Virus record (IMG/VR): IMGVR_UViG_3300032156_000010
Location: 1 to 58,183 of that record
Reading direction: 5' to 3' (one strand)
From: a virus
Length of the DNA stretch: 58,183 nt
Every line of letters starts with the position of its first letter. Within the stretch, counting starts at the first letter, position 1. The translations under genes were made by a program, and so were the position numbers. Positions 139-53,239 of this stretch are shown here, piece by piece. The notes below the pieces were generated by a model. The model was not told the origin of the DNA. It ran no database searches and saw only the letters and a program-made list of their open reading frames with translations.

Positions 139-157
139 TCTCATAAAGTCGTTAAGA

Positions 158-286
158 CCGGGTGTCGTAGGCGACGGATACTTCGACTTATAATCGAGAG
201 GTCGCGGGTTCGATTCCCGTCTGAGTCTTCGGGCTCGGTAGCTCAGTGGCAGAGCGCTTCCGTACCGTCACCGGCTGTTACCCCGG
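158..286 (+). ncRNA. yrlA: YrlA-type Y RNA with tRNA-like domain
   Basis: Outer stem CCGGGT (158-163) pairs with ACCCCGG (280-286). The shared internal loop (GTCGTA / GGCTGTT) and a second stem GGCGACGG/CCGTCACC follow. The tip is a circularly permuted tRNA-like fold: anticodon-like loop CTTATAA at 187-193, variable AGGTC, T arm at 204-220 with loop TTCGATT, acceptor 3' strand CTGAGTC at 221-227, a TTCG tetraloop at 228-231, acceptor 5' strand GGCTCGG at 232-238, TA, and D arm GCTC/GAGC at 241-255. All seven acceptor pairs form (two are G-T). Bacterial YrlA RNAs bind Ro60 orthologues and carry exactly such a tRNA mimic with a closed acceptor stem. The Ro60 gene starts 34 bases downstream. Confidence 0.88.
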
Positions 287-294
287 CTTTTTTT
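270..294 (+). terminator. Rho-independent terminator after the Y RNAs
   Basis: ACCGG and CCCGG can pair around a short loop and are followed by seven T residues (288-294). The 3' strand is the same one that closes the outer stem of the YrlA-type RNA, so the RNA 3' end and the terminator coincide. Some readthrough would be needed to express the Ro60 gene from the same promoter. Confidence 0.65.
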
Positions 295-320
295 ATTTCA
301 ACAGAGGGAGGGCTTCCACA

Positions 321-1850
321 ATGACACCTTTCAACAAATCCACTCAAGGCTCCGAGAAGACCGTCAATTTTGAGGGCGACCTGGCTTTCAATATGGGGCC
401 CCGAGAGGCGCTCTACGCGCTGGCTTGCACATCGAGCCTCCGGCCGAAATTCTATGTACCGGAAGTGGCGAACGAACTAAAGCGGCTGCGGGCACTGATT
501 AAGCGAGTGCCGGCCGAGTTCGTCGCCAAGCTGGCCGTCTATGTTAGGGAGAAGATGTATCTGCGGACAATGCCGCTGGTACTGGCCGTGGAGCTCTGCA
601 GGGTCCACAAGGGCGACGATCTAGTGCGACGGACCGTCCGGCGGGTCATCAAACGGGCCGACGAACTGGCCGAGATTCTGGCCTACTTTGCGGCGGCCGA
701 GGATCGGATCAGCAGGGATCCGCGGTCGAAGATTTTGAACCGGCTGCCGAAGCAGCTCCGCCTCGGGCTGGCCGACGCCTTTAATACCTTCGACGCATAT
801 CAGCTTGCCAAATACGATCGGGAAACGGCGATCAGACTGCGGGACGTCATGTTCCTTGTCCATCCGAAACCGAAGGATGCGAGCCAGGCCGAGATATTCA
901 AGCGCCTGGCCGAGCAGAGGCTTGAGACGCCCTACACCTGGGAGACCGAATTGTCGGCGAAGGGGAATAAAAAGGAGACCTGGGAGGGGCTGATCGATTC
1001 GGGCAAGGTCGGCTATATGGCCCTGCTGCGAAACTTGCGGAACATTCTCAGAGCTGGCGTCTCCAAGAATCACCTCAAGGCGGTCTGCGACAAGATCAGC
1101 AATTCGGTCGAGGTCGCCAAATCTCGTCAACTTCCCTTTCGGTATTTTTCCGCCTATGTTGAGATCTCCGGCAGCGATCAAGCTGTCTTCGAGAAAGCGG
1201 CCGTTTTATTGGCTCTTGAGGCGGCGACTCTTGCCTCGATCGTCAACGTGGCGATCAGCGAGGAGCGGGTCGTGGTGGCCTGCGATTTTTCGGGTTCCAT
1301 GCAGCACAACGTTTCCGAAAAGTCGGTCATCCAAAACCTGGATATCGGGATCGTCCTTGGGGCTCTCCTGAAAAGCAATCGGAAGACGGCGGTGGTCGGT
1401 ATCTTCGGAGATGAATGGAAGGTGATCGATTTTCCGCCCGGCAATATTCTCGGTAATTGCCTCGCTATGCGGAGACGGATTGGGGAAGTGGGTTATTCGA
1501 CTAACGGCCACCTGGCTGTCGAATGGGCCATCGCGAACAAGATCGAAGCCGATCGTTTTTGCATTTTTACAGATTGCCAACTTTGGGATTCGACCTGGGA
1601 TTTGCCTGTCCGCGGATTAAGAATTTCCGGCTATGGAGCGATGAATGATGCTTGGAACAAATACCAGGCTCTTTATCCCAAGGCCCGGCTGACGCTGTTC
1701 GACTTGACCGGCTACGGGACAACGCCGATTTCACTGAGAAGGCGAGACGTGACGCTGATCGCCGGCTGGTCCGATAAGGTTTTCGATGCCCTGGCCGCGA
1801 TCGAGCGAGGCGAGGAGGCTGTATCGGAAGTCGAAAAGATGGAGATATAG
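321..1850 (+). CDS. rsr: Ro60 orthologue (Rsr), TROVE-domain RNA-binding protein
   Basis: A 509-residue protein with the two parts of Ro60: an N-terminal helical-repeat TROVE ring (about residues 1-310) and a C-terminal von Willebrand A domain with a MIDAS motif DFSGS near residue 322. Ro60 is a ring that holds misfolded or structured RNAs in its cavity and Y RNAs on its outer surface; in bacteria the Y RNA can tether Rsr to the exonuclease PNPase. The start at 321 follows a GGGAGGG ribosome site. Three Y-RNA-like hairpins sit directly upstream, so the phage carries a complete Ro/Y pair. Its role in infection is not visible here; stabilising or processing phage or host RNA is the likely theme. 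Confidence 0.93.
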   Translation: MTPFNKSTQGSEKTVNFEGDLAFNMGPREALYALACTSSLRPKFYVPEVANELKRLRALIKRVPAEFVAKLAVYVREKMYLRTMPLVLAVELCRVHKGDDLVRRTVRRVIKRADELAEILAYFAAAEDRISRDPRSKILNRLPKQLRLGLADAFNTFDAYQLAKYDRETAIRLRDVMFLVHPKPKDASQAEIFKRLAEQRLETPYTWETELSAKGNKKETWEGLIDSGKVGYMALLRNLRNILRAGVSKNHLKAVCDKISNSVEVAKSRQLPFRYFSAYVEISGSDQAVFEKAAVLLALEAATLASIVNVAISEERVVVACDFSGSMQHNVSEKSVIQNLDIGIVLGALLKSNRKTAVVGIFGDEWKVIDFPPGNILGNCLAMRRRIGEVGYSTNGHLAVEWAIANKIEADRFCIFTDCQLWDSTWDLPVRGLRISGYGAMNDAWNKYQALYPKARLTLFDLTGYGTTPISLRRRDVTLIAGWSDKVFDALAAIERGEEAVSEVEKMEI

Positions 1851-6612: not shown

Positions 6613-6967
6613 AAACAAGATCCGCGTCCACGGCTTCGCCATGAATTCCCAAATGGTCCACGAGACGCTGCCCTTTTTCTCGATCGACAGTTCAAGCTGG
6701 ATGGCAGTCACGCGGTTTGGCAAGGCGAGCACGTTCAATGAAAAAACGGGCCGAGTTGAATACGTCGCCGTCACCCGCAAGATGCTTGCCCAGCCATATC
6801 TAAAATCCCGCATGGCCGCCAAGCTTTTTCCGCGCCGCCTGCGGTACGATCAGCCCGGAATCCGAGAGTCCGGCGCTTGGGCTCTTTTTAAGGCGGAGGC
6901 GGCCTAGAACGCGTTGGCGCGGCATCTGACGGCGATGTGGGCGGCCAAAGGAGTGACATGGGAATAA
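6506..6967 (+). pseudogene. dpdA: DpdA-like C-terminal remnant (7-deazaguanine transglycosylase)
   Basis: From about residue 26 of the frame opened by ATG 6506 the protein reads YLKHIEYAYKNKIRVHGFAM and then LPFFSIDSSSWM, the late part of the TGT-like DpdA family that swaps guanine in DNA for a 7-deazaguanine. The first ~25 residues are only an out-of-frame reading of the neighbouring phosphoribosyltransferase. The catalytic barrel is missing. A TAG at 6905-6907 then interrupts a frame that continues with HLTAMWAAKGVTWE to 6967, which looks like the family's natural C-terminus. TAG is an ordinary stop elsewhere in this genome. So the gene is deleted at the 5' side and broken near the 3' end. 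Confidence 0.65.
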
Positions 6968-7953
6968 GACACGTTATTCTTCCGATTGAGAGGATCGCCT
7001 CCCGCTACAGCCTCCAGTGGTGGCGATGGCTGGCGAGGAGCGCCTACCACCTTGAAGCCAAGGTCGAGTTCGTCGGCAGTTACGTCTCGCAGAAGATCAA
7101 GGAGGGAGAATTCCTTGACGTCTACGGCACCAACCTCTATAAGGCCCATCAACTTGCCCGCCTCCTTCGCCTGCTCCGTTCCGATCACACTTCCGATTTC
7201 AACATATTGATTTGCGACGGCTGGTATCCGGGCCTCGAGAGCCTGGCCTATGTACGGGACGCGGGCCGCAGGAGGGTCAGGCTGACTGCAATACTCCATG
7301 CCGGTACTTATGACCCGTGGGACTTTCTGACCCAACGAGGCCTAACCTCGTGGGCAGAGCATATCGAGAGAGGGTGGTTCCACCTGTTGGACAGGGTTTT
7401 CGTTGCCACCAGGTTCCATCAAAACTTGCTTATTTCGGCCCGCCAGGTTGACCCGGCCAAGATCAGCGTCGTCCGCTTTCCCGTCCACTACAATCCCCGC
7501 CACCACGGGAACCCTCACCGTGAACCGATCGTCGTATTTCCGCACCGCCTGGCCCCCGAGAAAGATCCCGAAGCGTTCACCCGCCTTCACGAATGCTATA
7601 TAACCCGCTACGGAGCGACGCCCGACGGACTCCACTTCGTCACGACGGCGGCCGGAGGCGGCTGCCGGAATAAGAGCCAATACTATGCGCTCCTCTCCCG
7701 CTGCCGCGTGGCCGTCTCTACGGCGCTGCAGGAGACGTTCGGAATAGCGATGCAGGAGGCCGTCAACGCCGGCTGTATGCCGGTCGCTCCGAATCGACTT
7801 TCCTATCCCGAAACACTTCGCGGTCATCGCCTTTACGAGAGCGAGGACGAGGCGGTGGATTTGATTCGGGAGGGGCTTTTGGATTATAAATGTCCTCGAG
7901 TGCTGTATCCCGGGGACATGGACGATATTCTCAGGAGGTTTTTATGTCAATAA
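6958..7953 (+). CDS. Glycosyltransferase resembling tRNA-queuosine mannosyltransferase
   Basis: A 331-residue GT-B glycosyltransferase. The C-terminal half has VVFPHRLAPEKDPEAF, a VSTALQETFGIAMQEA nucleotide-sugar motif (about residue 255-270) and AGCMPVAPNRLSYPE, a pattern I associate with the GTDC1/QTMAN type that mannosylates queuosine. Start 6958 has an AGGAG site six bases upstream. Next to queD and queE it could glycosylate a 7-deazaguanine base in DNA or tRNA; this is inference. The stop overlaps the next gene start. Confidence 0.72.
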   Translation: MGIRHVILPIERIASRYSLQWWRWLARSAYHLEAKVEFVGSYVSQKIKEGEFLDVYGTNLYKAHQLARLLRLLRSDHTSDFNILICDGWYPGLESLAYVRDAGRRRVRLTAILHAGTYDPWDFLTQRGLTSWAEHIERGWFHLLDRVFVATRFHQNLLISARQVDPAKISVVRFPVHYNPRHHGNPHREPIVVFPHRLAPEKDPEAFTRLHECYITRYGATPDGLHFVTTAAGGGCRNKSQYYALLSRCRVAVSTALQETFGIAMQEAVNAGCMPVAPNRLSYPETLRGHRLYESEDEAVDLIREGLLDYKCPRVLYPGDMDDILRRFLCQ

Positions 7954-8345: not shown

Positions 8346-9050
8346 ATGAGCGAGGAAAAGCTGCCCGCCGCCATCAAGCCCTACGACATCAAGGCCATGC
8401 GGGAGATTGAGACGAACCGCCTGGTAAAGGCCGAATGGAACTATAAGGACGATGACGAATTTAAATCGGCCCGCCTCCAAGAGAACCTGAAACGGAACGG
8501 GCAGATTGTCAACCTCATCGTCCGCCGCCTCACAACCGGTTACTACGAGGTGTTGGACGGCAATCACCGGCTGGACGCCATCCTCAAACTCGCCTGGCCC
8601 TCCGTGATCTGCTACGATCTGGGCGAGATCTCCGACGCCAAGGCTAAGCGCATCGCCGTGGAGATCAACGAGACGCGCTTCACGACCAATTATCCGAAAT
8701 TGGCGCAGACCATTAAGGACCTCAAAGAAGAGTTTTCCGACGACGATCTCCTCGCCACGCTCCCGTTCACCGAGCGCGAGTTCCAGGCACTTGAGGATAT
8801 GACCGTGGAGTTCGACTGGGAAAAGGCGGGGGCGGAGGCAGGCGCCAAGCAGAAGACCCTCGAGGACGAGATGGGCGGGGACAGGATCAAAATGGAATTC
8901 ATGCTGACAATCGACCAGGCGGGCGTCGTCAACGAGGCCGTTGCCCGCATCGTACTCGGCCTTAAACTCGAGGGATCGTACAGGAACAGCCGGGCTTTGG
9001 AGCTCATCGCCGCCGATTCCATGAATACCCCGCTGGAGAGTTTGACGTAG
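8346..9050 (+). CDS. ParB-like N-terminal domain protein
   Basis: A 234-residue protein with a ParB/Srx-type fold in the first 110 residues: LVKAEWNYKDDDEF, LQENLKRNGQIVNLIVR, and YYEVLDGNHRLDAIL, the GNHR motif being the nucleotide-binding site of the family. The rest is a helical domain. Phage proteins of this kind directly before the terminase may act in DNA modification, nuclease activity or regulation. A second ParB-family protein is encoded at 53240. Confidence 0.8.
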   Translation: MSEEKLPAAIKPYDIKAMREIETNRLVKAEWNYKDDDEFKSARLQENLKRNGQIVNLIVRRLTTGYYEVLDGNHRLDAILKLAWPSVICYDLGEISDAKAKRIAVEINETRFTTNYPKLAQTIKDLKEEFSDDDLLATLPFTEREFQALEDMTVEFDWEKAGAEAGAKQKTLEDEMGGDRIKMEFMLTIDQAGVVNEAVARIVLGLKLEGSYRNSRALELIAADSMNTPLESLT

Positions 9051-18080: not shown

Positions 18081-19187
18081 ATGATTAAATCCATCATGGA
18101 AAAACTGAGGGTTCGCAAGGCATACGACCTGGTCTCGCTGCCCAACATCCAATTCAGCCCCGAGGAGGCGGATCGGTTCATCACCTACATTGTCGAGGCC
18201 GGCGTTCTCAAAAATTTCGCCAGGATCGAACGGATGAATCGTCCGCAGAAGGACATCCCGGCCATCGGTTTCGGCACGGGCCGATTCCTGTATCCGGCCG
18301 GGCAGTTCAACGAGAGCAAATACAAAAAGGAATTTGCCTCGACCAAAATCCGGCTCGAAACTCAACACCTGCGGGGCGCCTTTCCGATTTTCGACAGCGA
18401 CCTGGAGGACCTGCCCGAGAACATGAGCGAAGCGGCCTACAAAGACGCCCTCATCAAACTCATCGCCCAAAAGATCGATCAGGAGATCGAGGCGGCTTTT
18501 TGGATCGGCGATACGGTGGGCCTCAACGGTTTTGCCGCCGACGACATCCGCAGCCTCTTTGACGGCTGGCGCTACCGGATCGTCAACTCGCAGATTGCCG
18601 GCCAGGCCTATTACAACCTGGTGGCCGGCGGCTCCCACGTGATCAACGCCTGCGAGGGCGGCCTTTCGGGATCCGATTTCGCGATTGCCGGAAAAATCGC
18701 CGAGCGGTTGGGCACGCCTCCCTACGACTGGGAGTTCAAGTACCACCAAATGCTCAAGGAAATGCCCGCCCGCTACAAAGCCGGGCTCGCGGATTTCCGT
18801 TTCTTGAACTCCGACCTGGTGACGCAGGACTATATCGGGGCCCTCGCCTCGCGCGGCACCACGCTGGGTGATGCCGTCATCACCGGCACCATCAAACCCG
18901 CTTTTGGGGCGGTACAGATCGTCGACGTGCCGCTCATGCCGACCGACCTGGGCGACCCGACCGCCACCCCCGACACGGATGGCGTTTTGGGCGCGGGCAA
19001 CTACACCGACGTTCTGCTGACGCTGAAAGACAATCTCATCGTCGGTTTTCAGCGGGATATTCGCATTGAGAGCCAGCGCGAGGCGGCCGACGAGGCGACC
19101 TACTTCTTCTACTCCATCCGGGTCGCGCTCGCCATCGAGAATCCTAACGCCATCGTCCTGCTCCGGTGCCTGGAGCACGCCTGCTAG
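18081..19187 (+). CDS. Major capsid protein (HK97-fold)
   Basis: A 368-residue protein in the normal capsid position, with an E-loop-like region (IPAIGFGTGRFLYPAG), a spine-helix candidate (EAAYKDALIKLIAQKIDQEIEAAF cut in two halves around residue 125-150) and a late FQRDIRIESQREAADEATYFFY segment typical of HK97-fold coat proteins. Preceded by GAAGGAG. It assembles into the icosahedral shell around the scaffold. Confidence 0.88.
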   Translation: MIKSIMEKLRVRKAYDLVSLPNIQFSPEEADRFITYIVEAGVLKNFARIERMNRPQKDIPAIGFGTGRFLYPAGQFNESKYKKEFASTKIRLETQHLRGAFPIFDSDLEDLPENMSEAAYKDALIKLIAQKIDQEIEAAFWIGDTVGLNGFAADDIRSLFDGWRYRIVNSQIAGQAYYNLVAGGSHVINACEGGLSGSDFAIAGKIAERLGTPPYDWEFKYHQMLKEMPARYKAGLADFRFLNSDLVTQDYIGALASRGTTLGDAVITGTIKPAFGAVQIVDVPLMPTDLGDPTATPDTDGVLGAGNYTDVLLTLKDNLIVGFQRDIRIESQREAADEATYFFYSIRVALAIENPNAIVLLRCLEHAC

Positions 19188-19221: not shown

Positions 19222-19542
19222 ATGATTGTTCAAAATCACGGCCCACGGCGGACATTCCCGACACGGATTGGCGACCTTTATTTTGTGACGGGTGAGCGGC
19301 GAGAGATCGCCGACCTGGCGGTGGTGGAGGAGATTTCCCATTATCCAATGGTGACGATCGAAGACGCTCAGCCCGCACTTCCCGCGTTGCCGTCGATCCG
19401 CGCCGGGCTGTCCGCAGAGGGGTTCCGTGGTCTGACGCTCATGCAGCTCCGGGTTGAGGCGCGGCGCCTCGCCATCACGCTTCCGACGGGGGCGCGGAAG
19501 GCTAACGTCATCGCAATCCTCGAAAAGGAGATAAACACATGA
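19222..19542 (+). CDS. Hypothetical protein with SAP/HeH-like C-terminus
   Basis: A 106-residue protein. The first 55 residues look like a small beta barrel; the last 35 (GLTLMQLRVEARRLAI... ARKANVIAILEKE) have the helix-extended-helix outline of SAP or LEM/HeH domains often found on phage head accessory proteins. Overlaps the next gene by four bases. Confidence 0.6.
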   Translation: MIVQNHGPRRTFPTRIGDLYFVTGERREIADLAVVEEISHYPMVTIEDAQPALPALPSIRAGLSAEGFRGLTLMQLRVEARRLAITLPTGARKANVIAILEKEINT

Positions 19543-20342
19543 ACGAAACTTTTGACACTGAACGGTTTCCTAAGGTTGGAGCGGACAGACAGCTCTATAT
19601 TCGTGACATCGAGTTCGCCAACCTTCACATCAATCACGACAAGATGGATCTCCTGTGTAACTACCTGGACCTGGCTCAAGCGTTCCGGGTGGAGGAGGAC
19701 TTCAGTTATCTTGACACCGGCCACTGGACCATCGTCTACACGGGAGGGAACGGCTCGGCGACCATTATCGACTGGCCCTGCGGCTTGGCTGAGTTCGTGC
19801 CCGACGTCCACGCCGGCGATGACGTCGAGGTATTCACCCCCGCCCAGGTTTTCGAACTCCATTCCGGCTATCCGGCCTACTTCGAGATCAGAGGCAAGAT
19901 TTGGGGTTTTAGTGACTGTGACTTTTGGTTCGGCCTGGTGGACGCCGGGTTCTTCGCCGGCGCCTACACCAACTGCGTCATCTGGAAAAAGGACGACGGC
20001 GACACCGAACTGGATTACCTGTGCACGACCCCCGACGGCACGACCGCCGGAACGGCCGACGTCGACATCATCGGCGGGGACGAGGTCTTCGGCCGCCTCG
20101 GAATTTATTGGGACGGCAAAGGCAACGTGGCCTTCATCGGGCTGGCCGACGGGGATTGGCCGGAGGCCGTGGTGTTTGTCCACGTGGTGTCCGCCTTCAT
20201 TCCCACGGACATCACTATGTACCTAGGCTTCGGTTTCCAAATCGGCGCTCTCGCCGGGGCCAATGCTCTGTACGTGGACTACGTGAAAGGCGTTCAGCGC
20301 CGGCTGCTGTATGAATACGAGGTGCCGCGCAAACCGCAGTAA
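19539..20342 (+). CDS. Putative capsid-associated structural protein
   Basis: A 267-residue, aromatic-rich, mostly beta protein with many Asp and Gly residues and a lectin- or jelly-roll-like look. Directly downstream of the capsid genes, where decoration or major accessory proteins are usual. No known family recognised. A terminator-like hairpin follows, which marks the end of the abundant capsid transcript. Confidence 0.55.
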   Translation: MNETFDTERFPKVGADRQLYIRDIEFANLHINHDKMDLLCNYLDLAQAFRVEEDFSYLDTGHWTIVYTGGNGSATIIDWPCGLAEFVPDVHAGDDVEVFTPAQVFELHSGYPAYFEIRGKIWGFSDCDFWFGLVDAGFFAGAYTNCVIWKKDDGDTELDYLCTTPDGTTAGTADVDIIGGDEVFGRLGIYWDGKGNVAFIGLADGDWPEAVVFVHVVSAFIPTDITMYLGFGFQIGALAGANALYVDYVKGVQRRLLYEYEVPRKPQ

Positions 20343-20484: not shown

Positions 20485-21108
20485 ATGGGTTATAACGGAA
20501 ACTATATCTCCGACACCGACATCACCTGGCCTTCCGGCATATCGGCCGCCGAGAAGCAGGAGATCATCGAGACGGCCGAAGCCGTCCTCGAACACGCCCT
20601 GGCCTGGCGCCCCCGCTTCAGTCATTTCGATATTCGGATGGACGGCAACAGCAAAAACCGGATCATCCTCCCCCTGCGAGAGCGGATCATTGAGGTCTCC
20701 GACGTCTACGTCAACGCTCAAAAACTCGAACCGACCTGGTGGACCCACGATCTGTGCTCCGTCTATCTTGACGCTTGGAGCTCCAACGCCGCTCTTCCCT
20801 CCGATCCCGAGCTCGACCGCCTGTTGAGCGAGAGGGACGGCGGGATCTTCGTCCGCGGTTACAATAACATTCGCATTGTCGGCACCTGCGGAGTGAGTGC
20901 CGTGCCGGCCTGGGCCCGCCGGGCCGTCCGCATGATTGTCGACGCGATGAACGATCCCACGGCCTATACCATCTACCACACGGGCGGCGAGACGATCGGA
21001 CGCTATTCCTACAACAGCCCGGCCGGGGCCTGTAAGACGGGCATTCGGGAAGTTGACGAGCTGCTGAAGCTCTTTGTCCGGAAGAAACCGATCCTCATGG
21101 CCCCATGA
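20485..21108 (+). CDS. Head-tail connector (gp6-like) protein
   Basis: A 207-residue protein with the outline of phage head-completion adaptors: a helical N-terminal region (EKQEIIETAEAVLEHALAWR), a central beta part, then VPAWARRAVRMIVDAMNDP and VDELLKLFVRKKPIL at the C-terminus, resembling gp6/gp15-type connectors. A small AGCCC-GTC-GGGGCT hairpin (20457-20471) lies just before its ribosome site. It overlaps the first gene of the glycan cassette. Confidence 0.65.
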   Translation: MGYNGNYISDTDITWPSGISAAEKQEIIETAEAVLEHALAWRPRFSHFDIRMDGNSKNRIILPLRERIIEVSDVYVNAQKLEPTWWTHDLCSVYLDAWSSNAALPSDPELDRLLSERDGGIFVRGYNNIRIVGTCGVSAVPAWARRAVRMIVDAMNDPTAYTIYHTGGETIGRYSYNSPAGACKTGIREVDELLKLFVRKKPILMAP

Positions 21109-21863
21109 CGATTGCCAAGCGGGCCTTCCCCTTCCAGACTAAACGACGGGAGCTCCGTGATCCTGACCAGGATCCTAATTTTGGAACGCCCGACTGGGGC
21201 AATCGTCACGTCGCCGAGGTATTGCCACAGGGCTGTTGGACCGGCCATCCGTGCGTCATCGTGGGAGGCGGGCCGAGCTTCGAGGCGTTCGACGCCTTTC
21301 GGCTCAAGGGCTGGCGCACGATCGGTGTCAACCGAGCCTTCATTCGTTTCGAACCGACGATCGTTTTTTCCATGGACACTCGCTATTTGAATTGGCTTTT
21401 GGCCGGACAATACGGCGTCTCCGAAAAACTCCATTTTTTGACCCTTCGTTCCTACCGCGTATGGCACCTCGTGAGGCCGGCCACCTTGCCGGGCGAATAC
21501 TATTACGCGCAGGGCTATCGCGGGGCCATCAATGCGCTTGATTCCGTGAGTCTGCGCCTCGAGGAGGGGCTGGGGACGGGAGCTAATTCCGGCTACGGGG
21601 CGTTGAACCTGGCGGTGTTGTTGGGGGCCGCCCCGATTTATTTACTGGGCTTCGACTGTAGCCATACACCGAACGGCCGCACTCACTGGCACGCGGGTCA
21701 TCCGGTGTCTCAAACTCAACGCCATCTTAACGCCTTCATTTCGCATTTCACGGCCGCCGCCCGGGAGTTCAAACGCCTGGCCCGCGGTCCGATCATCAAT
21801 CTAAGCCGCGGAACCGCCCTGCGGTGCTTCGATCTGGGCGACCCCGAGGAGGTATTCCAGTGA
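21105..21863 (+). CDS. DUF115 / MptE-like family protein
   Basis: A 252-residue protein with VIVGGGPSFE near the N-terminus and GANSGYGALNLAVLLGAAPIYLLGFDC in the C-terminal half, signatures of the DUF115 family, which includes motility-accessory (flagellin glycosylation) factors, sialyltransferase-like proteins and MptE. It opens a ten-gene glycan cassette embedded in the structural block; a transferase acting on a sugar of the virion is the natural reading. The stop overlaps the next start. Confidence 0.7.
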   Translation: MTIAKRAFPFQTKRRELRDPDQDPNFGTPDWGNRHVAEVLPQGCWTGHPCVIVGGGPSFEAFDAFRLKGWRTIGVNRAFIRFEPTIVFSMDTRYLNWLLAGQYGVSEKLHFLTLRSYRVWHLVRPATLPGEYYYAQGYRGAINALDSVSLRLEEGLGTGANSGYGALNLAVLLGAAPIYLLGFDCSHTPNGRTHWHAGHPVSQTQRHLNAFISHFTAAAREFKRLARGPIINLSRGTALRCFDLGDPEEVFQ

Positions 21864-22213
21864 TCTCAGGCAAAGTGTGGGGCACGACAATGCCTATTTT
21901 TCAGACACCTTTCGTCAAATCCTTCGGGCTAAAAATCAAGGCCGGGGGCTTCTCCTCCGAACACCGTCATCGCTACCGCTCCAACTATTTTTTTATCGCC
22001 ACGGGGCGACTGCGGGTGTTGACCTGGATGGAGAAGGGAAAGGCGCCGGACGTGATCGAGCTCAGACCATTCGAATCGACCTGCGTCCCGCCTGGCCTGT
22101 GGCATAAATTCGAAGCCCTCGAGGCATCGATCGTCGTGGAGTCCTACGTCGGGATGGAAGCGGACAACGGCGACATCGAACGCCGCACTCGCGGCGGGCT
22201 TGGAAAAGGATGA
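21860..22213 (+). CDS. Cupin-fold protein (WxcM/sugar-isomerase-like)
   Basis: A 117-residue protein starting at GTG 21860, overlapping the previous stop (GTGA). It has the cupin spacing: HRHRYRSNYFFIATGRLRV, then a later PPGLWHKFEALEASIVVES, with metal-type His residues in both parts. Small cupins of this sort act as sugar epimerases, isomerases or sensors in glycan clusters. The exact reaction is unknown. Confidence 0.7.
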   Translation: MISGKVWGTTMPIFQTPFVKSFGLKIKAGGFSSEHRHRYRSNYFFIATGRLRVLTWMEKGKAPDVIELRPFESTCVPPGLWHKFEALEASIVVESYVGMEADNGDIERRTRGGLGKG

Positions 22214-22337
22214 TGGGCGAGGTGAGGGGCGGGAGGAGCATGGGCCGAGTTCCGACGTTTTGGACGCGACGGGAAAGCCCTCCCTCACGGCTTGTGCGCC
22301 CGCCTCTCACCACGCCTTTCCACCGTGGAGCCCGGCC

Positions 22338-23246
22338 ATGAAGGTGGCGCTCTATAGCCGGACACCGCTGGCGGCCGCCCCGCTTGAGATCTGGAAGGCA
22401 CTCGAGCGATATGGCGTCGGCATCGAAACTTCGCTCATCAACAGGACGCTCGGCTATAGAGACGGCCGACGATTCCCCGGGCATCTCCTGGCCTCTAACG
22501 CCGATGCCGCAAGGGCATTAAAAGGGGCTGACCTGTGGCACGTTCACAATTATTGGGATCGGGAACCGCTTGACGCGCTTCTCGCTCGATACGGGCGCCC
22601 CGTGGTGGCCCAATTCCATTCCGTCCCAAGGCTGGGCAACTGGGCCGAACTCCAATCGAAGGCAAAAATCAGTTACACAATTCGACAGCCTTTACAGGCC
22701 AGGGAGTACGCGCCCTTTATGACAATGCCCAACCTTGTCGATGCTGACGAGCGCCGGCCCGCCCGTCGATCGATGGAGGGCCCCGTGCGAATTGCCTTCG
22801 CTCCCTCGACCCAAGCCCCGGTCGGACATCCGGCGTCGAAAGGCCGGGCGGAGGTGTTGGCGATCTTGAAGACCGTTGCCGCCGAGCGGGCCGTGGAGGT
22901 GGTGCTGATCGAGGGCGTTCCCTACGAGGAAAACCTGAAACTCAAGCGATCGGCTCACATCCTGGTGGACGACGTGGTGACGGGCAACTGGCATCGCACC
23001 TCCCTCGAGGGCGCCTGCTTCGCCTGTGCCGTCCTCAATGCCGCCCGACAACAGGGCGCCGCCTGGCCGTGGGTCCATGCGACGCTCGCCTCGCTCCGCG
23101 CCAAGCTTCTGCAGCTTATCGACGATCGTCCGCTATTGATCAGGGTGCAGGAAATGACCCGCGCCTGGATTCTCGGTTCCGAGTTTCATGCCCTCGAGGG
23201 CGTCAAGGAATATGTCAAAGCCTATCAGGAGGTGCTAAGTGCGTGA
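22338..23246 (+). CDS. GT-B (family 4-like) glycosyltransferase
   Basis: A 302-residue protein with a Rossmann-like start (MKVALYSRTPLAAAPLEIWK), LWHVHNYWD, then RIAFAPSTQAP and a C-terminal nucleotide-sugar region (ILVDDVVTGNWHRTSLEGAC). The pattern fits a short GT4-like transferase. The region 22214-22337 before it has no gene of its own. It overlaps the next gene by eight bases. Confidence 0.72.
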   Translation: MKVALYSRTPLAAAPLEIWKALERYGVGIETSLINRTLGYRDGRRFPGHLLASNADAARALKGADLWHVHNYWDREPLDALLARYGRPVVAQFHSVPRLGNWAELQSKAKISYTIRQPLQAREYAPFMTMPNLVDADERRPARRSMEGPVRIAFAPSTQAPVGHPASKGRAEVLAILKTVAAERAVEVVLIEGVPYEENLKLKRSAHILVDDVVTGNWHRTSLEGACFACAVLNAARQQGAAWPWVHATLASLRAKLLQLIDDRPLLIRVQEMTRAWILGSEFHALEGVKEYVKAYQEVLSA

Positions 23247-23919
23247 GATCACCGTCATCATCGCTACGCGCGGGCGACTCGAAAAGTTGCGCCGGACATT
23301 GGTCTCCATCCCGCTCCAAGCAAACGGCGCGGCCGTACATGTCGCCGTCGCCTGCGACGCGGACGAAGCGACGTTCCATGAGCTCGGGAAGCAGGGACTC
23401 CGCCGCGCTGGCGAAGTCGATGAACTTGTATTAATCCCGGAGCAGCGGGGGGCCGTCTATTGCCGGAACCGCCTGGCGGAGAACGTGAGGGACGCGGTGT
23501 TGTGGGCTACCGATGACATTGTCTTCAAACCTCGATCGATCGAAGCCGCCGCCGAAAGCCTCTCCCGCCGCTTCACCGAGGAGGACGGGGTTGTGGGTTT
23601 CAATCAGGTGAATCACAAGCATTTCAACCCGACGGGCGTTGGGATTATGGGCCAGGCGTTTCTTCTTCGTTATCCCGAGAAGCACCTATTTTTTCCCGGC
23701 TACTTTCATTTCGCTTGTCAGGAGATTCACTGGTTAGCCACGAGGTTGGGAAAATTTCATTTTGAGCCGATGGCGCGGCTTGTCCACCACCATCCGTCGG
23801 AACGGGAATTTCGAGAGGAGATGGATCAGACGCACGCTGATGCCCGAATTTTCAAGAGCCGCGACATGGCACTCCTCGCCCAGCGTACCGAAGCGGGCGA
23901 GGCATGGGGGGCGGAATGA
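23239..23919 (+). CDS. GT-A (family 2-like) glycosyltransferase
   Basis: A 226-residue protein starting at GTG 23239. ITVIIATRGRLEKL opens a GT2-type nucleotide-binding fold; LWATDDIVF holds the Asp pair equivalent to the DxD metal site, and an EIHW segment follows. C-terminal His-rich stretch LVHHHPSE. A small, single-domain enzyme; the sugar is unknown. Confidence 0.75.
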   Translation: MREITVIIATRGRLEKLRRTLVSIPLQANGAAVHVAVACDADEATFHELGKQGLRRAGEVDELVLIPEQRGAVYCRNRLAENVRDAVLWATDDIVFKPRSIEAAAESLSRRFTEEDGVVGFNQVNHKHFNPTGVGIMGQAFLLRYPEKHLFFPGYFHFACQEIHWLATRLGKFHFEPMARLVHHHPSEREFREEMDQTHADARIFKSRDMALLAQRTEAGEAWGAE

Positions 23920-23952
23920 ACCTGGCCGGGGCGGAGAGGGCCGAGATCAGGG

Positions 23953-24807
23953 GTGGAAATGCCCTGCGATATGCACCAGGTGCATCCTGCTGGGTCAATA
24001 CGGGTGGGCCTTATAAGGACGCCGGAAAGGGCGATCGAGGCTGACGTGGGCAAATTCCCGCCCCGTGTCCGGTTCGTCGTTGAGACGTTCCTGGCCTACG
24101 ACCGGCCCACTCAAACGCCCTCTCCCGAATGGGTTCAATTCCGGCTTCGTTGGTTTGTCGATCACACGCTCCGCTCCCTCCGGGCTCAGACCTGGCGGGA
24201 GTTTGAGATCTTCGTACAGACCGGAGAACGATATCGGGATCTCGTCAACGCTTTCGCCTGGCCGGACGATGTGAGGGTGTGCCGGCAGCGCGGCCGGGAG
24301 GCATATCAGGAGGGGCTGGGGCGTTACGATTTTCTCTCCATGACCCGTATTGATAGCGACGACCTTTTCCGGCAAGATGCCATGGATGAGGTGCGGGCGG
24401 CGGTCCTGTCTCGGCTGCCCGTCAAGGAACGCACGGTATTGGTCTTTCCGGCCCGATCGGTTTGGGATGCGATGAATGGGCTGATCATCGGCCCCCATAC
24501 CCGGCCCTCGAGTCCGTTCTTCACCCATATTTTTCCCTACTCTATGGTAGCCGACTGGCCCGCGTTCCAGGCGGCTCACTTCTGTGGGCACGGTTCGGGC
24601 GGAGCCGGCGACCGTGGAGCGATGCACCTATCGCGAGATAAAGTGATGGTCGTCAAGCATGGATGGAATTGGTCGAATCTTAAACGCGGCAAAAGCTGGC
24701 CGAAGAAGGCGGCCGATCTCGAAAAGCTCCAGGCCCAATTTCCCGGCGTTGAGGTGACGTGTGACCCGGCCAGGATCGCGGCGATCCTTTCGGAGTATGG
24801 ACAATGA
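23953..24807 (+). CDS. Putative glycosyltransferase
   Basis: A 284-residue protein with SLRAQTWREFEIFVQTG and LSMTRIDSDDLF, a DSDD metal site as in GT-A enzymes, plus a basic C-terminal segment (NWSNLKRGKSWPKKA). I give the GTG at 23953; the first ~30 residues are weakly convincing and a later start is possible. Part of the embedded glycan cassette; overlaps the next gene by four bases. Confidence 0.6.
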   Translation: MEMPCDMHQVHPAGSIRVGLIRTPERAIEADVGKFPPRVRFVVETFLAYDRPTQTPSPEWVQFRLRWFVDHTLRSLRAQTWREFEIFVQTGERYRDLVNAFAWPDDVRVCRQRGREAYQEGLGRYDFLSMTRIDSDDLFRQDAMDEVRAAVLSRLPVKERTVLVFPARSVWDAMNGLIIGPHTRPSSPFFTHIFPYSMVADWPAFQAAHFCGHGSGGAGDRGAMHLSRDKVMVVKHGWNWSNLKRGKSWPKKAADLEKLQAQFPGVEVTCDPARIAAILSEYGQ

Positions 24808-25487
24808 TTAGTGAGAAGACATTTTCGGTTCTGATCACCACTCGTGCGCCCGAACGGCGGACGACAATCGGGGAGGTGGTCGGGGCCTGGGCCGCGCAGA
24901 CGGCCGATCAAGTATGGCTTCTCAATTGCGGCGCCCCGCTGCCGGCCATGAAGGGGGCCAGGGTTTTTAACCTCCCCGTCGATCCCGGCACTCGCACCGA
25001 CTATTCGATGGCCTTATTGACGACGGGGGATTTCGTGGTACTAGCCGACGACGACGTGGTCGTGGGCCATGGCTTCCTCGAGGCCTTATTTCAAGGTTGG
25101 CAGGAGGCCGGAGCGAGGGGCCTGGTGGGAATCATAGGCCGAACGTTCCAGGGTTCTACCTATTGGGGGGAGACCACTTTTTTCCGCGCCTCGCTTCTCG
25201 ATCGACCCGTGAGAGTGGGTTTTGTCGGCGTGGTGATCCTGGCGCCGCGCGAGCTGATGGCTTTTGACGCTCGGGGATGCCCGAGAAATTGCGATGACCT
25301 GTGGCTGGCGATGAAGACGTGGCCGGACGAGCCGAAACACGTGGTGCCCGTCCATCCCTACCGCAATCTGGCGGAAGCGAAGGGCAAGTCGGCCATGTAC
25401 CGTGATCCCGCGCTCCGTGAGCAACGGCAGCAATTCTACGGCGATCACTATCTCAAAACCTATGCGCCAGCGGGAAGGAAATTCTAG
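24804..25487 (+). CDS. GT-A (family 2-like) glycosyltransferase
   Basis: A 227-residue protein with FSVLITTRAPERR at the start and FVVLADDDVVVGHGFLEAL, a textbook DDD metal-binding motif. GCPRNCDDLWLAMK later in the chain provides the usual second acidic site. Third of three GT-A enzymes here, which suggests that a chain of several sugars is built. Confidence 0.78.
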   Translation: MISEKTFSVLITTRAPERRTTIGEVVGAWAAQTADQVWLLNCGAPLPAMKGARVFNLPVDPGTRTDYSMALLTTGDFVVLADDDVVVGHGFLEALFQGWQEAGARGLVGIIGRTFQGSTYWGETTFFRASLLDRPVRVGFVGVVILAPRELMAFDARGCPRNCDDLWLAMKTWPDEPKHVVPVHPYRNLAEAKGKSAMYRDPALREQRQQFYGDHYLKTYAPAGRKF

Positions 25488-25488
25488 C

Positions 25489-26031
25489 ATGGTGGATCTG
25501 AAGGTGGCCGCGGTGATCGTTGAAACGATCGTCGGGATTATGGCCGAGGCTGAGATCCCGGTTTTTTTGACGCTTGGCACGGCCCTCGGTGCCTGGCGGC
25601 ATGGCGATTTCCTGCCTCACGATCTCGACATCGACCTAGGATTCCTGGCCGAGGACGGGAAGGCGGCCCGCCTCATCCTCGCCGCCGGAGCATTCATGAG
25701 GGCGGGATTTGTGACGAAAGCGTTGACGACGGGCATGGGTTTCAAGCTCTCCCGCTCCCCGTTCCATGCCGATCTGCCTCCCTATGTATTGGAGGGGAAA
25801 GCGCGAGTAGTCTACTCGAATAATAAAACGAAAAATAAAAGGCATTACAAGTTGGTCTATCCGGCAACGCTATTCGAGCACATGGAGACGGTTAGGCTAG
25901 GAGGTCACCGCTATCTCGCGCCGATGCCCATTGAGACCTACCTACGTCGACAATACGGGCCGACCTATGCCGTGCCGGATCCGGAGTGGAAAGCGCAGTG
26001 GAGCCCGGCGCGGGTATATCTAAAGCCATGA
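25489..26031 (+). CDS. LicD-family phosphotransferase-like protein
   Basis: A 180-residue protein with the LicD core LTLGTALGAWRHGDFLPHDL and DIDLGF: the D-x-D acidic pair after a G-T-x-L-G-A-x-R lead. LicD proteins move phosphocholine or similar phospho-groups from CDP-linked donors onto glycans. The next gene is a cytidylyltransferase that could make such a donor. One base separates it from the preceding stop and it overlaps the next start. Confidence 0.82.
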   Translation: MVDLKVAAVIVETIVGIMAEAEIPVFLTLGTALGAWRHGDFLPHDLDIDLGFLAEDGKAARLILAAGAFMRAGFVTKALTTGMGFKLSRSPFHADLPPYVLEGKARVVYSNNKTKNKRHYKLVYPATLFEHMETVRLGGHRYLAPMPIETYLRRQYGPTYAVPDPEWKAQWSPARVYLKP

Positions 26032-26486
26032 ACACGGACAAGTTGAAGGACCTGGCTCATCCCCGCGTTCTGGTGGTCGGGTGTTTTGATTTATTCCATC
26101 GCGGCCACCTGGCACTCCTCGAGCGGGCTCGCCGTTGCGGCGTCTCGCTCATTGTGGGCGTGGTGACGGATGAATTTCGCGCCAAGACGAAAGGCGCGGA
26201 ACCCATCATTCCGTTTTCCGATCGGGCGATAATCCTGGCCGGCCTCCGGTGTGTCGACGCGGTAGTCGAGGTGCGAGAGCCTGACTTCCGCCCTCTGATC
26301 AAGGAATATGGGATCGATGTTTTCGTTCACTCGCCCGAACACCGCGAGATCCGCTTTCTCGAGGCAACCGACGTTATCCGCCGCCGCGGAGGTCACGTGG
26401 TGTTGTTATCGAGGACGCCCGATATTTCATCGACGATGATCAGACGGAGGATCGTCGAGACATGGAACGAAGGGAGGGTGGAATGA
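26028..26486 (+). CDS. Cytidylyltransferase-like (TagD type) nucleotidyltransferase
   Basis: A 152-residue protein with GCFDLFHRGHLALLERA, the HxGH nucleotidyltransferase signature, and ISSTMIRRRI near the end, equivalent to the ISTT..K/R motif. The family activates glycerol-phosphate, choline-phosphate or ethanolamine-phosphate with CTP. Together with the LicD gene next door it forms a donor-and-transferase pair. Overlaps both neighbours by four bases. Confidence 0.85.
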   Translation: MNTDKLKDLAHPRVLVVGCFDLFHRGHLALLERARRCGVSLIVGVVTDEFRAKTKGAEPIIPFSDRAIILAGLRCVDAVVEVREPDFRPLIKEYGIDVFVHSPEHREIRFLEATDVIRRRGGHVVLLSRTPDISSTMIRRRIVETWNEGRVE

Positions 26487-27061
26487 AAATGACCGCTGAC
26501 GATTACATCCGAAAACATTGGGAGCCGCGCCGGGTCTGGACGCACCTTGAGTGGCCGAAACACCGCAACCGTTTCGCCCGCATCGCGACCATGCTCAACG
26601 GGCCTAGTAAGTCGGGCCTCTACGTGGACGTCGGCTGCTGCTTCGGCCATTCAACATACCACCTGGCTCGCCTTCAAACGGGGACGTGGCATGGTGTCGA
26701 CTTTTCTCTCCGGGCCGTGGACATGGCGAAGACCTTTTTCCCGAAACTCAATTTTATCTTTTGCTCCGGTTTCGACGACTTGGCTCTCCTCGGGCCCTAC
26801 GATGGTGTCGTGTGCTCGGAAGTTATCGAGCACGTTGAGGACGATGCAGGATTAGCCCAGGCGCTGGCTATCATAACGCGCGGGAAGCTCGTCGTCACGA
26901 CGCCGGCGGTGCGGGTGAACGATCCGGGTCACCTCCGCGTTTATAACGAGGCATCGTTAGCCGCCCTTTTCAAAGACCTGGGGCTCCAAGTCTTGACCTC
27001 GATCCATGGGCCGTTTATTTATCTCCAAGGCTGGATGCCGCCAGCCGAGGCGGGAGAATGA
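26483..27061 (+). CDS. SAM-dependent methyltransferase
   Basis: A 192-residue class I methyltransferase: YVDVGCCFGHSTYHLA is the SAM-binding motif I, GVDFSLRAVDMAK follows, and YDGVVCSEVIEHVEDD is the motif seen in small-molecule and sugar methyltransferases. Likely methylates a sugar of the glycan built by the neighbouring genes. Confidence 0.82.
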   Translation: MKMTADDYIRKHWEPRRVWTHLEWPKHRNRFARIATMLNGPSKSGLYVDVGCCFGHSTYHLARLQTGTWHGVDFSLRAVDMAKTFFPKLNFIFCSGFDDLALLGPYDGVVCSEVIEHVEDDAGLAQALAIITRGKLVVTTPAVRVNDPGHLRVYNEASLAALFKDLGLQVLTSIHGPFIYLQGWMPPAEAGE

Positions 27062-27825
27062 TGAAGCAAGCGAGGGTTCTCGATTTCATTATGGAGATCG
27101 ATGAACGAGACGGATTGGGCCGGAAGCTCTTGAAAAATGGAATTTATGAACTCCGTGAAGCCCGTACCTGGCGGGCGATTTTGCGGCCAGGGGCGACGGC
27201 ATTTGACATCGGCGCTCACTGGGGCTATTATTCCATCCAAGCGTCCAAGATCGTCGGCGAGGGGGGCTGTGTTGTCGCCGTGGAGCCTGAGCCGATGAAT
27301 TATGGGATGCTTTGCCGGAACCTCGACCTCAACCGCTGCTCGAACGTCAAGGCAATGGAGGCGGCGGTCGATGGCCCCGATCTGTCCGATTATCCTCCCG
27401 GAGCCTTCCTCCCCAACGCTAAAAATTCCGGCGCCGGCCGCCTCCTCCCCGGCCCGGCCGTTTATCCCCTTCTCCAAACGATTGCCGTCAACCGGTTGTC
27501 GCTTCTTTCTCTTCTTCGCCTTTATCCCAAGGCCAACATCGTAAAATGCGACACACAAGGCGCGGAGGCACACATCTTTTGCGCCGACGCCCTCGAGGAG
27601 CTCCGGCGGCGCGAGGCAAAAATCATTTTTGAGTACTGGCCTCGAGGACTCAACCTTCGCGGTTCCAACGGCAAGGGGCTACTGGCAAATTTTATAAACG
27701 CCGGTTTCGCCCTCTTTCGCTTCGATAAATCCGGCCTCGAGCTCCTCGGCGGGAGGGATCCCCTGGCCGGCGCCCGGGCGGGGCATACAAACCTCTTCGC
27801 CCGCCCCCGGGAGGTCGCGCCGTGA
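27058..27825 (+). CDS. FkbM-family methyltransferase
   Basis: A 255-residue protein with AFDIGAHWGYYSIQASKIVG, VAVEPEPMNYGMLCRNLDLN and VKCDTQGAE, the three hallmarks of FkbM methyltransferases, which O-methylate sugars and other small hydroxyl groups. Two methyltransferases in a row suggest a multiply capped glycan. The stop overlaps the start of the neck gene, so the cassette is transcribed with virion genes. Confidence 0.85.
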   Translation: MMKQARVLDFIMEIDERDGLGRKLLKNGIYELREARTWRAILRPGATAFDIGAHWGYYSIQASKIVGEGGCVVAVEPEPMNYGMLCRNLDLNRCSNVKAMEAAVDGPDLSDYPPGAFLPNAKNSGAGRLLPGPAVYPLLQTIAVNRLSLLSLLRLYPKANIVKCDTQGAEAHIFCADALEELRRREAKIIFEYWPRGLNLRGSNGKGLLANFINAGFALFRFDKSGLELLGGRDPLAGARAGHTNLFARPREVAP

Positions 27826-28124
27826 GCTACCTCTCCCTCCTCCCCAACACCGTCCAGCTCGTCTTGATGGCGCCCGACACCATGAATCGTGTCACCCGGA
27901 GCGTGGTCGCTACGGAGAAAGCCAGGATCGAGTACACGGACAAGCTGTTCCGTATGCCGCAAGGCGAATACATCAGGTCCGTGGCCTGCGTTTTCTTGAC
28001 CGCTAAAAGCGTTGTCCGTCAGGAGCACCTGATCTGCTTCGGCGGGCGAGACTATTCGATCATCGAGCTCCGCCGCGAGCAGGGCGCCACGAAGCTCCAC
28101 CATATCGAGGCTTGGGTCCGATGA
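27822..28124 (+). CDS. Putative head-closure / neck protein
   Basis: A 100-residue, mainly beta protein starting at GTG 27822 by overlapping the FkbM stop. Size, beta content and location between head genes and the tail terminator fit a head-closure protein of the SPP1 gp16 / HK97 type. No diagnostic motif is seen. Confidence 0.5.
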   Translation: MSYLSLLPNTVQLVLMAPDTMNRVTRSVVATEKARIEYTDKLFRMPQGEYIRSVACVFLTAKSVVRQEHLICFGGRDYSIIELRREQGATKLHHIEAWVR

Positions 28125-28561
28125 AACCTCCGGCTATATCCGCCATTTCGACCAAAAATCTTTCGTTGATTTTTGACGATGTGGATTTTTCCAACGGGTA
28201 CGCTCGTTTCATGGGGACGACCGCGCCGGAGACCGCCAAGCGGGCGATATTCCGTACCTGGGCGTTCATCCTTCGCGACGCCATCGTGGAGGAACCGAGA
28301 GCGCCGCACAAGCGCGGTTTCCTCTGGAATTCGCAGACCATCATGACGCCCTATATGATCGGCGACGAGATCGTTTCCATCGGCGGTTTCAGCATCGTCT
28401 ACGCCGGCTATCTTCACGATAAAGGCAAGCCGTCCTGGAATTGGACGCTGGCCGGATCCGGCCCCAGATATCTCTCAACAAAGTTGGCGCGGAACGCCGA
28501 AAAATATCTTCAGATCGCCGCCCGCGAGATGGCCCGCGAGTGGCCGAAGGGAAAGGGGTAG
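28121..28561 (+). CDS. Putative neck / tail-completion protein (gp10-like)
   Basis: A 146-residue protein that includes KRAIFRTWAFILRDAIVEE and a C-terminal AEKYLQIAAREMARE helix. The order helix, basic loop, helix is seen in HK97 gp10-like tail completion proteins. Overlaps the preceding gene by four bases. Confidence 0.55.
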   Translation: MKPPAISAISTKNLSLIFDDVDFSNGYARFMGTTAPETAKRAIFRTWAFILRDAIVEEPRAPHKRGFLWNSQTIMTPYMIGDEIVSIGGFSIVYAGYLHDKGKPSWNWTLAGSGPRYLSTKLARNAEKYLQIAAREMAREWPKGKG

Positions 28562-29029: not shown

Positions 29030-29560
29030 ATGGGTGTAAAACTTCCTTTCAATGACATCGGACCCTGCGACGTTGTGTGGGATTACGGCGAGCCAGGCGA
29101 GTACAGCCTCGGCCCGTATGTGGGCCAAGTCAAACTCGCGGCCGAGGATCAGATCGTCAAGGTGTTCGAGGAGAGCCTGGGCGATACGGCGGTCGACGCC
29201 GTTAACTCGGGAATGACGGCGGAGCTGACTGTGCCGCTGACCCGTTCGACGCTCCAACAGTTGGAGCACATCCTGCCGGGCGTCACACTCGATGTCAACG
29301 GCAACCTGGTCTTTCGCCCGAGGTGCGGTTCGGCGATGTATTCCGCCGCCAAGGCGATCGTCATCAAGCCGGTCGAGAACATGGTGCCCGTGGCGGATGT
29401 CGGGAAATGGATCATGTTCTACAAGTGCTATCCGTACAAATCGCTCGAGATCCCCTTCGATCGCTCGAGCCAACGGACGCACTTGCTCAAGTTCCTGGTT
29501 TTCCCGAACATGGACTCGGGCTTCAGCTACGAGATGTGGCAGTACGGCGTTCACCCCTAA
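29030..29560 (+). CDS. Major tail tube protein
   Basis: A 176-residue beta-rich protein with a strong AAGGAGG site, followed by the two-frame chaperone gene and the tape measure, which is the fixed order in siphoviruses. GPCDVVWDYGEPGEYSLG at the start and TVPLTRSTLQQLE in the middle fit the tube-protein outline. It stacks as rings around the tape measure. Confidence 0.78.
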   Translation: MGVKLPFNDIGPCDVVWDYGEPGEYSLGPYVGQVKLAAEDQIVKVFEESLGDTAVDAVNSGMTAELTVPLTRSTLQQLEHILPGVTLDVNGNLVFRPRCGSAMYSAAKAIVIKPVENMVPVADVGKWIMFYKCYPYKSLEIPFDRSSQRTHLLKFLVFPNMDSGFSYEMWQYGVHP

Positions 29561-52968: not shown

Positions 52969-53210
52969 ACAGGATGACAACTAGAACCCGGCTGATGGAA
53001 ACGGTCGCCTTGCTGGCGCTTACGGCGACATTCACCAAAAAATACAGCTTCGGGCAGCTAGGAATGGGCTTACAGCGGGATTACGATCCTCGAGGCCAAT
53101 TGAGCCCTGGCCCGGGAAATCCGCGAGTTGTGCGGGCGCCTGGTCCGACGGAATCGCGGCCGCTCGTGAAACCGATTCTAAAAATCCCCGGGCGGAGAAA
53201 AAATAGATGA
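52965..53210 (+). CDS. Small basic hypothetical protein
   Basis: An 81-residue protein, Pro/Arg-rich in the second half and with a short hydrophobic start (METVALLALTATFTKKYSFG) too weak for a secretion signal. ATG 52965 overlaps the previous stop; 52974 is an alternative start. Likely disordered. Confidence 0.5.
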   Translation: MNRMTTRTRLMETVALLALTATFTKKYSFGQLGMGLQRDYDPRGQLSPGPGNPRVVRAPGPTESRPLVKPILKIPGRRKNR

Positions 53211-53239
53211 GATCAAAAATCAAAAGGAGGAAAAATCAA

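What the first reader, a model, noticed from the sequence alone, without database searches (positions are those of the whole stretch)
21105..27825. Ten-gene glycan cassette inserted in the virion structural block
Seen: DUF115, cupin, one GT-B, three GT-A enzymes, LicD, cytidylyltransferase, a class I methyltransferase and FkbM, nearly all joined by 4-base overlaps, lie between the head-connector and neck genes. Known: some phages encode glycosyltransferases that modify virion proteins. Inferred: virion proteins receive a multi-sugar, phosphorylated and methylated glycan made during assembly, possibly to hide from antibodies or host surveillance or to bind the host.
Basis: partly seen in the sequence, partly recalled or inferred. 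Interest (0 to 1): 0.9.

Follow-up and report, generated by a model that had tools for sequence, protein, structure and literature searches.

The report
Swappable phage sugar-coat gene cassette
This phage carries ten sugar-building and sugar-decorating genes wedged between two genes for its head-tail joint, and dozens of relatives carry differently composed sets in the same spot behind one constant enzyme, so these viruses probably coat their own particles with interchangeable glycans.

Summary
The ten genes are real (21105-27825, + strand) and lie between two head-tail connector genes. In cassette-free relatives those two genes are neighbours, in three cases with a 4-base overlap; in the window both edges of the cassette are 4-base overlaps.

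The slot is conserved: 46 IMG/VR contigs have a DUF115-family gene 2.0-8.5 kb upstream of the same neck gene, 24 of them with no detectable homologue of this capsid. DUF115 diverges in step with the structural genes; the genes behind it are swapped. All 24 family-2 glycosyltransferase matches in 13 such contigs fall inside the slot, about 13% of contig length.

The DUF115 protein is predicted to fold like Maf, the flagellin O-glycosyltransferase (Z 15.7). A LicD/FKRP-like transferase sits beside a cytidylyltransferase, suggesting a CDP-alcohol donor. No transmembrane protein, flippase or polymerase was found in the cassette.

Best explanation: cytoplasmic, protein-linked glycosylation of a virion component. 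The acceptor is not shown. Precedent: mycobacteriophage Corndog/Che8 virion glycosylation. This is a larger, modular variant with a conserved Maf-fold lead enzyme. The antibody-evasion idea has no support here; host-surface modification remains the main rival.

The parts
18081..19187 (+). major capsid protein (context)
   Evidence: phrog_1623 E 8e-45; 24-28% identity to annotated major capsid proteins of Streptomyces and Vibrio phages
19539..20342 (+). virion-block protein with predicted ConA-like (L-type lectin/GH16) fold; candidate glycan partner or acceptor
   Evidence: AF2 pLDDT 69; Foldseek legume lectins E 1e-8; VIA Z 16-18.6 to GH16 glucanases and lectins; found in 41 of 43 DUF115-positive contigs with this capsid and adaptor
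20485..21108 (+). head-tail adaptor, left edge of the slot
   Evidence: phrog_442 E 3e-8; 4-base overlap with c1
21105..21863 (+). c1: DUF115/MptE-like, predicted Maf/GT42-fold transferase; conserved lead gene
21860..22213 (+). c2: cupin (possible sugar isomerase/epimerase); GTG start with GGAGG upstream
   Evidence: Cupin_2 8e-7; weak D-lyxose isomerase similarity
22338..23246 (+). c3: GT-B glycosyltransferase
   Evidence: Glyco_transf_4 5e-4; 50-58% identity across 9 loci
23239..23919 (+). c4: GT-A glycosyltransferase (GT2-like)
   Evidence: homologue in L006 scores PF00535 6e-16
23959..24807 (+). c5: GT-A glycosyltransferase (putative rhamnosyltransferase family); start could be GTG 23953
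   Evidence: Rhamno_transf in 11 of 12 family members; invariant DxDD
24804..25487 (+). c6: GT-A glycosyltransferase (GT2)
   Evidence: PF00535 in 9 of 14 family members; invariant DDD
25489..26031 (+). c7: LicD-family phospho-alcohol transferase
   Evidence: LicD 1e-9; FKRP (6kaj) 5e-9 across residues 12-165; DLDIDLG motif
26028..26486 (+). c8: cytidylyltransferase (glycerol-3-P / ethanolamine-P type)
   Evidence: CTP_transf_like 2e-21; 3elb 6e-16, 1coz 7e-14; HxGH and ISSTxI motifs
26483..27061 (+). c9: class I SAM methyltransferase
   Evidence: Methyltransf_23 3e-11
27058..27825 (+). c10: FkbM-family O-methyltransferase
   Evidence: Methyltransf_21 4e-7
27822..28124 (+). connector protein, right edge of the slot; directly follows the adaptor in cassette-free relatives
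   Evidence: phrog_793 E 0.007; profile match to the post-adaptor protein of cassette-free phages, 94%, E 1e-7
28121..28561 (+). Neck1/tail-completion protein
   Evidence: phrog_5 E 4e-4; profile match in cassette-free phages, 78%, E 2e-5
29030..29560 (+). probable major tail tube protein ('Ig domain' PHROG); candidate acceptor
   Evidence: phrog_2175 5e-10; second gene upstream of the tape measure gene; conserved in 42 of 46 complete-slot contigs

Best explanation
The cassette is a virion-glycosylation operon. It lies co-directionally within the virion gene block, with 4-base overlaps to the connector genes at both edges, so it is probably transcribed and translated with them late in infection. 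c1, a Maf/GT42-fold transferase, most likely attaches or primes sugar on a phage structural protein in the cytoplasm. The GT-B and GT-A enzymes extend the chain, c8 makes a CDP-alcohol that c7 transfers onto it, and c9/c10 methylate it. The 3' genes are exchanged between phages, so particles of related phages would carry chemically different coats. Shown: gene content, position, empty sites, conservation of c1, turnover of the rest, absence of export machinery in the cassette. Inferred: order of reactions, acceptor protein, purpose.
For: Empty sites: in relatives with a homologous capsid the adaptor is followed directly by a protein homologous to the window's right-edge connector, with a 4-base overlap in L215, L222 and L203. 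The slot recurs in 46 contigs, 24 without a detectable homologue of this capsid in the locus. All 24 GT2 matches in 13 DUF115-positive contigs fall in the slot; none occurs in four cassette-free contigs. Apparently independent glycan insertions at other connector junctions in L218 and L220. c1 identity tracks structural-gene identity (rho 0.38-0.53, like structural against structural 0.40-0.55); the rest of the content does so weakly (0.14-0.20). c1 model: Maf Z 15.7 over 192 residues, Cst-I/II about 11-12; Maf enzymes O-glycosylate flagellins (PMC11339370). No transmembrane segment in the cassette. Precedent: Corndog has one O-methyltransferase and three glycosyl/GlcNAc-transferases in its virion gene block (PMC4351075), and glycans have been reported on capsid and tail tube of mycobacteriophages (Freeman 2023, cited in PMC12619734 and PMC11256854).
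Against: No acceptor or glycan is shown. Late expression from the virion block would also suit enzymes acting on the host envelope. c1 also resembles archaeal HPPK (Z 11.7), so a protein-transferase role is not proved by fold. Nothing recognised as nonulosonate synthesis occurs in the cassette, so the donor of c1 is unknown. The host is unknown. Insertion between overlapping genes can be tolerated without a functional link.
Confidence: 0.68

Rival explanations
1. Host-surface modification: the enzymes alter the host's cell-wall or surface glycans during late infection, for example to prevent superinfection or stop progeny sticking to debris.
For: This reading was proposed for LicD in Flandersviridae and for a glycosyltransferase encoded near structural genes in Gratiaviridae (Benler 2021, PMC8008677). 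LicD enzymes decorate surface polymers in bacteria. Variable composition could follow host surface variation.
Against: No membrane protein, flippase, polymerase or lipid-carrier transferase in the cassette. No integrase or serine recombinase detected, so lysogenic conversion lacks support. The lead gene tracks structural genes, and insertions sit among connector genes in several arrangements.
Confidence: 0.2
2. Moron-style cargo: a permissive site between overlapping connector genes collects any late-expressed genes, and the glycan enzymes have no single shared role.
For: Structural or unrelated genes (LamG, collagen, transaldolase, radical SAM) also appear near the slot in some phages.
Against: Glycosylation, methylation, sulfation and sugar-synthesis families dominate the recognisable slot genes, and one DUF115 family leads the slot in 46 contigs.
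Confidence: 0.07
3. DNA hypermodification: the glycosyltransferases glycosylate modified bases of phage DNA.
For: Phage glycosyltransferases that modify DNA are known (Pyle 2024, cited in PMC12619734; phage Thanatos, PMC12838424, listed).
Against: No thymidylate-synthase-family gene in the window and no base-modification family among the scanned ORFs. These enzymes are usually in replication modules, not at the head-tail junction (general knowledge).
Confidence: 0.03

Closest known systems
Mycobacteriophage Corndog (cluster O) gp35-gp38 module and virion glycosylation of Che8/Corndog-type phages (Freeman 2023; PMC4351075)
   Same: Glycosyltransferases and an O-methyltransferase encoded inside the virion gene block; glycans reported on capsid and tail tube of such phages
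   Different: Four genes between portal and protease, against ten between adaptor and connector here. No Maf-fold/DUF115 lead gene, LicD/cytidylyltransferase pair or sulfotransferases were reported in what I read
Caulobacter phages CcrColossus and CcrPW, DUF115 ('alpha-2,3-sialyltransferase') gene cluster
   Same: DUF115 gene overlapping a tail gene, followed by sugar-transferase, methyltransferase and GT9 genes
   Different: Located between tail gene and endolysin in phages of about 280-308 kb; only 31% identity over about 70% of c1; no functional test found
Maf flagellin glycosyltransferases (5mu5; PMC11339370)
   Same: Best structural match of c1 (Z 15.7, 192 residues)
   Different: c1 is much shorter (252 against 632 residues), about 14% identical, acceptor unknown; no nonulosonate pathway recognised alongside
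FKRP/LicD and glycerol-3-phosphate or ethanolamine-phosphate cytidylyltransferase pairs
   Same: Nearest solved relatives of c7 and c8
   Different: Here in a phage virion gene block; which alcohol is activated is unknown

Membership tests
Phage virion glycosylation system (Corndog/Che8 type) | glycosyltransferase genes within or linked to the virion structural genes | tested here: met
Phage virion glycosylation system (Corndog/Che8 type) | glycan covalently attached to a virion protein | not testable with these tools
   needs virion proteomics
Maf/GT42-fold glycosyltransferase (c1) | Maf/CstII fold | tested here: met
   AF2 pLDDT 86.7; Maf Z 15.7, Cst-I Z 12.0; HPPK also at 11.7
Maf/GT42-fold glycosyltransferase (c1) | transfers sugar to Ser/Thr of a protein | not testable with these tools
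   needs an enzyme assay
Maf/GT42-fold glycosyltransferase (c1) | sequence family PF01973 | tested here: met
   E 2.4e-5, below Pfam cut-off for c1 itself; homologues in L022, L025, L028 score 37-42 bits, over the cut-off of 34.6
LicD-family transferase (c7) | LicD profile over curated cut-off and acidic motif | tested here: met
   39 bits against cut-off 22.6; DLDIDLG
Lysogenic conversion / O-antigen modification cassette | membrane flippase, membrane glucosyltransferase or O-antigen polymerase | tested here: not met
   no transmembrane segment and no such family in c1-c10
Lysogenic conversion / O-antigen modification cassette | integrating temperate phage | tested here: not met
   no tyrosine integrase or serine recombinase match in the record, which may be incomplete
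DNA hypermodification system | dNMP hydroxymethylase (thymidylate-synthase homologue) or comparable base-modifying enzyme | tested here: not met
   no PF00303 match in the record; no other modification family among scanned ORFs

The most novel reading that the evidence does not exclude
The slot is a coat-type locus for phages: a conserved Maf-fold enzyme stays with the virion genes as a fixed linker to a structural protein, while the downstream chain-building genes are swapped like capsule or O-antigen genes, so many uncultured phage lineages display different glycans on otherwise similar particles.
Probability: 0.45. Interest if true: 0.85.

Novelty: new variant of a known kind. Interest (0 to 1): 0.66.

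Why it matters
Virion glycosylation has been demonstrated for a few cultured mycobacteriophages. Here a dedicated cassette with one conserved lead enzyme, clean empty sites and swapped downstream genes occurs across dozens of environmental phage contigs, including ones with unrelated heads. If confirmed, it would make protein-linked glycans a common, fast-changing feature of some tailed-phage particles, give a marker gene (the DUF115 gene at the head-tail junction) for finding such phages, and offer a set of compact glycan-modifying enzymes. The empty-site relatives and the cultured Caulobacter phages make the idea testable.

Tried and rejected
Searched PDB sequences with c1 and c3 profiles: no match, so c1 rests on its predicted fold. 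Searched papers for DUF115 with phage or flagellin terms: nothing. The Freeman 2023 paper itself is not held, so it is cited through papers that describe it. Looked for promoters or terminators around the cassette: counts near chance. GC content shows no step at the cassette, so no compositional sign of recent acquisition. Looked for the host: the capsid search of 84,980 bacterial and archaeal genomes gave three MAG contigs from three phyla; not resolved. The broad tail-protein alignment was too divergent to search with; a closer subset worked. Relatives of the record could not be drawn because it is a virus record. Considered the PHROG label 'alpha-2,3-sialyltransferase' for c1: the fold fits GT42/Maf, but sialic acid as donor is unsupported. 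Considered the 'DNA methyltransferase' PHROG label on the upstream 801-residue protein: the match is only to its C-terminal ~130 residues and the same stretch matches head maturation protease families, so it was not taken as DNA modification.
Full report
1. Check. The window is a whole 58,183-base virus record. Ten intact ORFs on the + strand fill 21105-27825. Family assignments hold: DUF115/MptE, cupin, GT-B, three GT-A, LicD, cytidylyltransferase, class I methyltransferase, FkbM. Some are below Pfam cut-offs in this sequence but are supported by family members: c4 through its L006 homologue (PF00535, 6e-16), c5 (11 of 12 members match Rhamno_transf, DxDD invariant), c6 (9 of 14 match Glycos_transf_2, DDD invariant). 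Seven of eleven junctions, both edges included, are exact 4-base overlaps, fewer than 'nearly all'. The flanks are a head-tail adaptor upstream and two connector/neck genes downstream, with the capsid protein and tape measure further out.

2. The slot is conserved. Capsid, DUF115 and tail-protein searches of IMG/VR gave loci that collapse, together with the window and a few others, to 147 distinct contigs. Of 73 with the Neck1-type gene, 46 have DUF115 upstream, with 2.0-8.5 kb between. Many of the other 27 are contigs cut off before that point; some have other genes there. Of the 46, 24 have no detectable homologue of this capsid in the locus, so the cassette also sits beside other head modules, though a few of those loci are short upstream.

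3. Empty sites. Relatives with a homologous capsid but no cassette (L215, L216, L222, L211, L203, L209) have the adaptor directly followed by a small connector; in L215, L222 and L203 the overlap is 4 bases. That connector is homologous to the window's right-edge gene (profile comparison 94%, E 1e-7), and the Neck1-type gene also has its counterpart close by in these phages (78%, E 2e-5). Streptomyces phage Coruscant, with a related capsid, also lacks a cassette there. In L220 and L218 glycan genes occur one and two genes further downstream, respectively, which suggests separate insertions into the same gene block.

4. Constant front, swapped rear. In 46 complete slots (354 proteins) DUF115 is the constant member; the c4-type glycosyltransferase, cupin and GT-B are frequent; the rest varies. 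Pairs with 50-60% identity in the tail-side proteins share 62% of cassette genes; pairs at 30-40% share 26%. Close pairs show exchanges: L024 and L034 (about 84% flank identity) differ by a block of two genes against three; L084 and L095 share 56%; L106 and L107 share 50%. DUF115 identity tracks structural genes about as well as structural genes track each other, while the remaining content tracks them weakly. Alternative genes include sulfotransferases, epimerase/GDP-mannose dehydratase, GT9, C-methyltransferase and radical SAM.

5. Location is specific. A family-2 glycosyltransferase search of 22 contigs of 39-55 kb gave 25 matches: 24 in 13 DUF115-positive contigs, all inside the slot, and one in the connector block of L218. 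Four cassette-free contigs gave none. The slot averages 13% of contig length. The window itself has one further glycosyltransferase, of GT-B type, outside the slot (6937-7953).

6. Chemistry. c1 (AF2 pLDDT 86.7) best matches Maf (Z 15.7), then Cst-I/CstII (about 11-12) and HPPK (11.7). Maf enzymes O-glycosylate flagellins (PMC11339370). c8 is nearest to ethanolamine-phosphate and glycerol-3-phosphate cytidylyltransferases and c7 to FKRP, so they may form a donor-plus-transferase pair; the alcohol is unknown. No transmembrane segment occurs in the cassette, which fits cytoplasmic modification better than surface polysaccharide export.

7. Acceptor. Not identified. The protein at 19539-20342 between capsid and adaptor is predicted to have a ConA-like fold (pLDDT only 69; Z 16-18.6). 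It is present in 41 of 43 DUF115-positive contigs with this capsid and adaptor, but also in several without DUF115; phylogeny is not corrected for. It may be an acceptor, a glycan binder or neither. Capsid and tail tube are the known acceptors in mycobacteriophages (as described in PMC12619734).

8. Rivals. Host-surface modification has been proposed for LicD and glycosyltransferases in gut phages (PMC8008677) and cannot be excluded. DNA hypermodification lacks the expected enzymes. Lysogenic conversion lacks integrase and membrane proteins. The record may be incomplete, so absences are limited evidence.

9. Novelty. Glycan enzymes in virion gene blocks are known (Corndog; annotated without comment in Caulobacter phages). 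New here are size, the head-tail junction slot with empty sites, the Maf-fold lead gene and the turnover of the rest. I found no paper describing this slot, within an open-access library only.

Noticed in passing
window 6937-7953: An eleventh glycosyltransferase (GT-B, Glycos_transf_1 2e-7) lies alone upstream of the terminase gene, outside the cassette.
   Followed up: no
window 155-1850: A tRNA-Ile (anticodon TAT) is followed by a TROVE/Ro60-like protein with a vWA domain; Ro60 proteins bind Y RNAs, so a Y-RNA-like gene could be looked for.
   Followed up: no
window 19539-20342: Conserved virion-block protein with a predicted ConA-like lectin/GH16 fold; L032 has a LamG-domain protein in the corresponding region.
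   Followed up: partly
L028:13042-16323, L022:4941-7497, L025:11455-13787: DUF115 fused into proteins of 777-1093 residues (in L022 with a GT9 domain), suggesting one-polypeptide glycan assembly.
   Followed up: no
L033:15056-17890: A 944-residue GT2-TPR-methyltransferase protein downstream of the capsid gene in a phage without DUF115, near a protein with a depolymerase-like C-terminus.
   Followed up: no
L141:1-3800 and L160:1-4300: Different sugar-pathway-like genes (epimerase, C-methyltransferase-like, radical SAM-like, GT-B-like by eye) upstream of the same connector gene in other phages.
   Followed up: no
window 8346-9050 and 53207-54940: Two proteins with ParB N-terminal domains in one phage without a detected integrase.
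   Followed up: no
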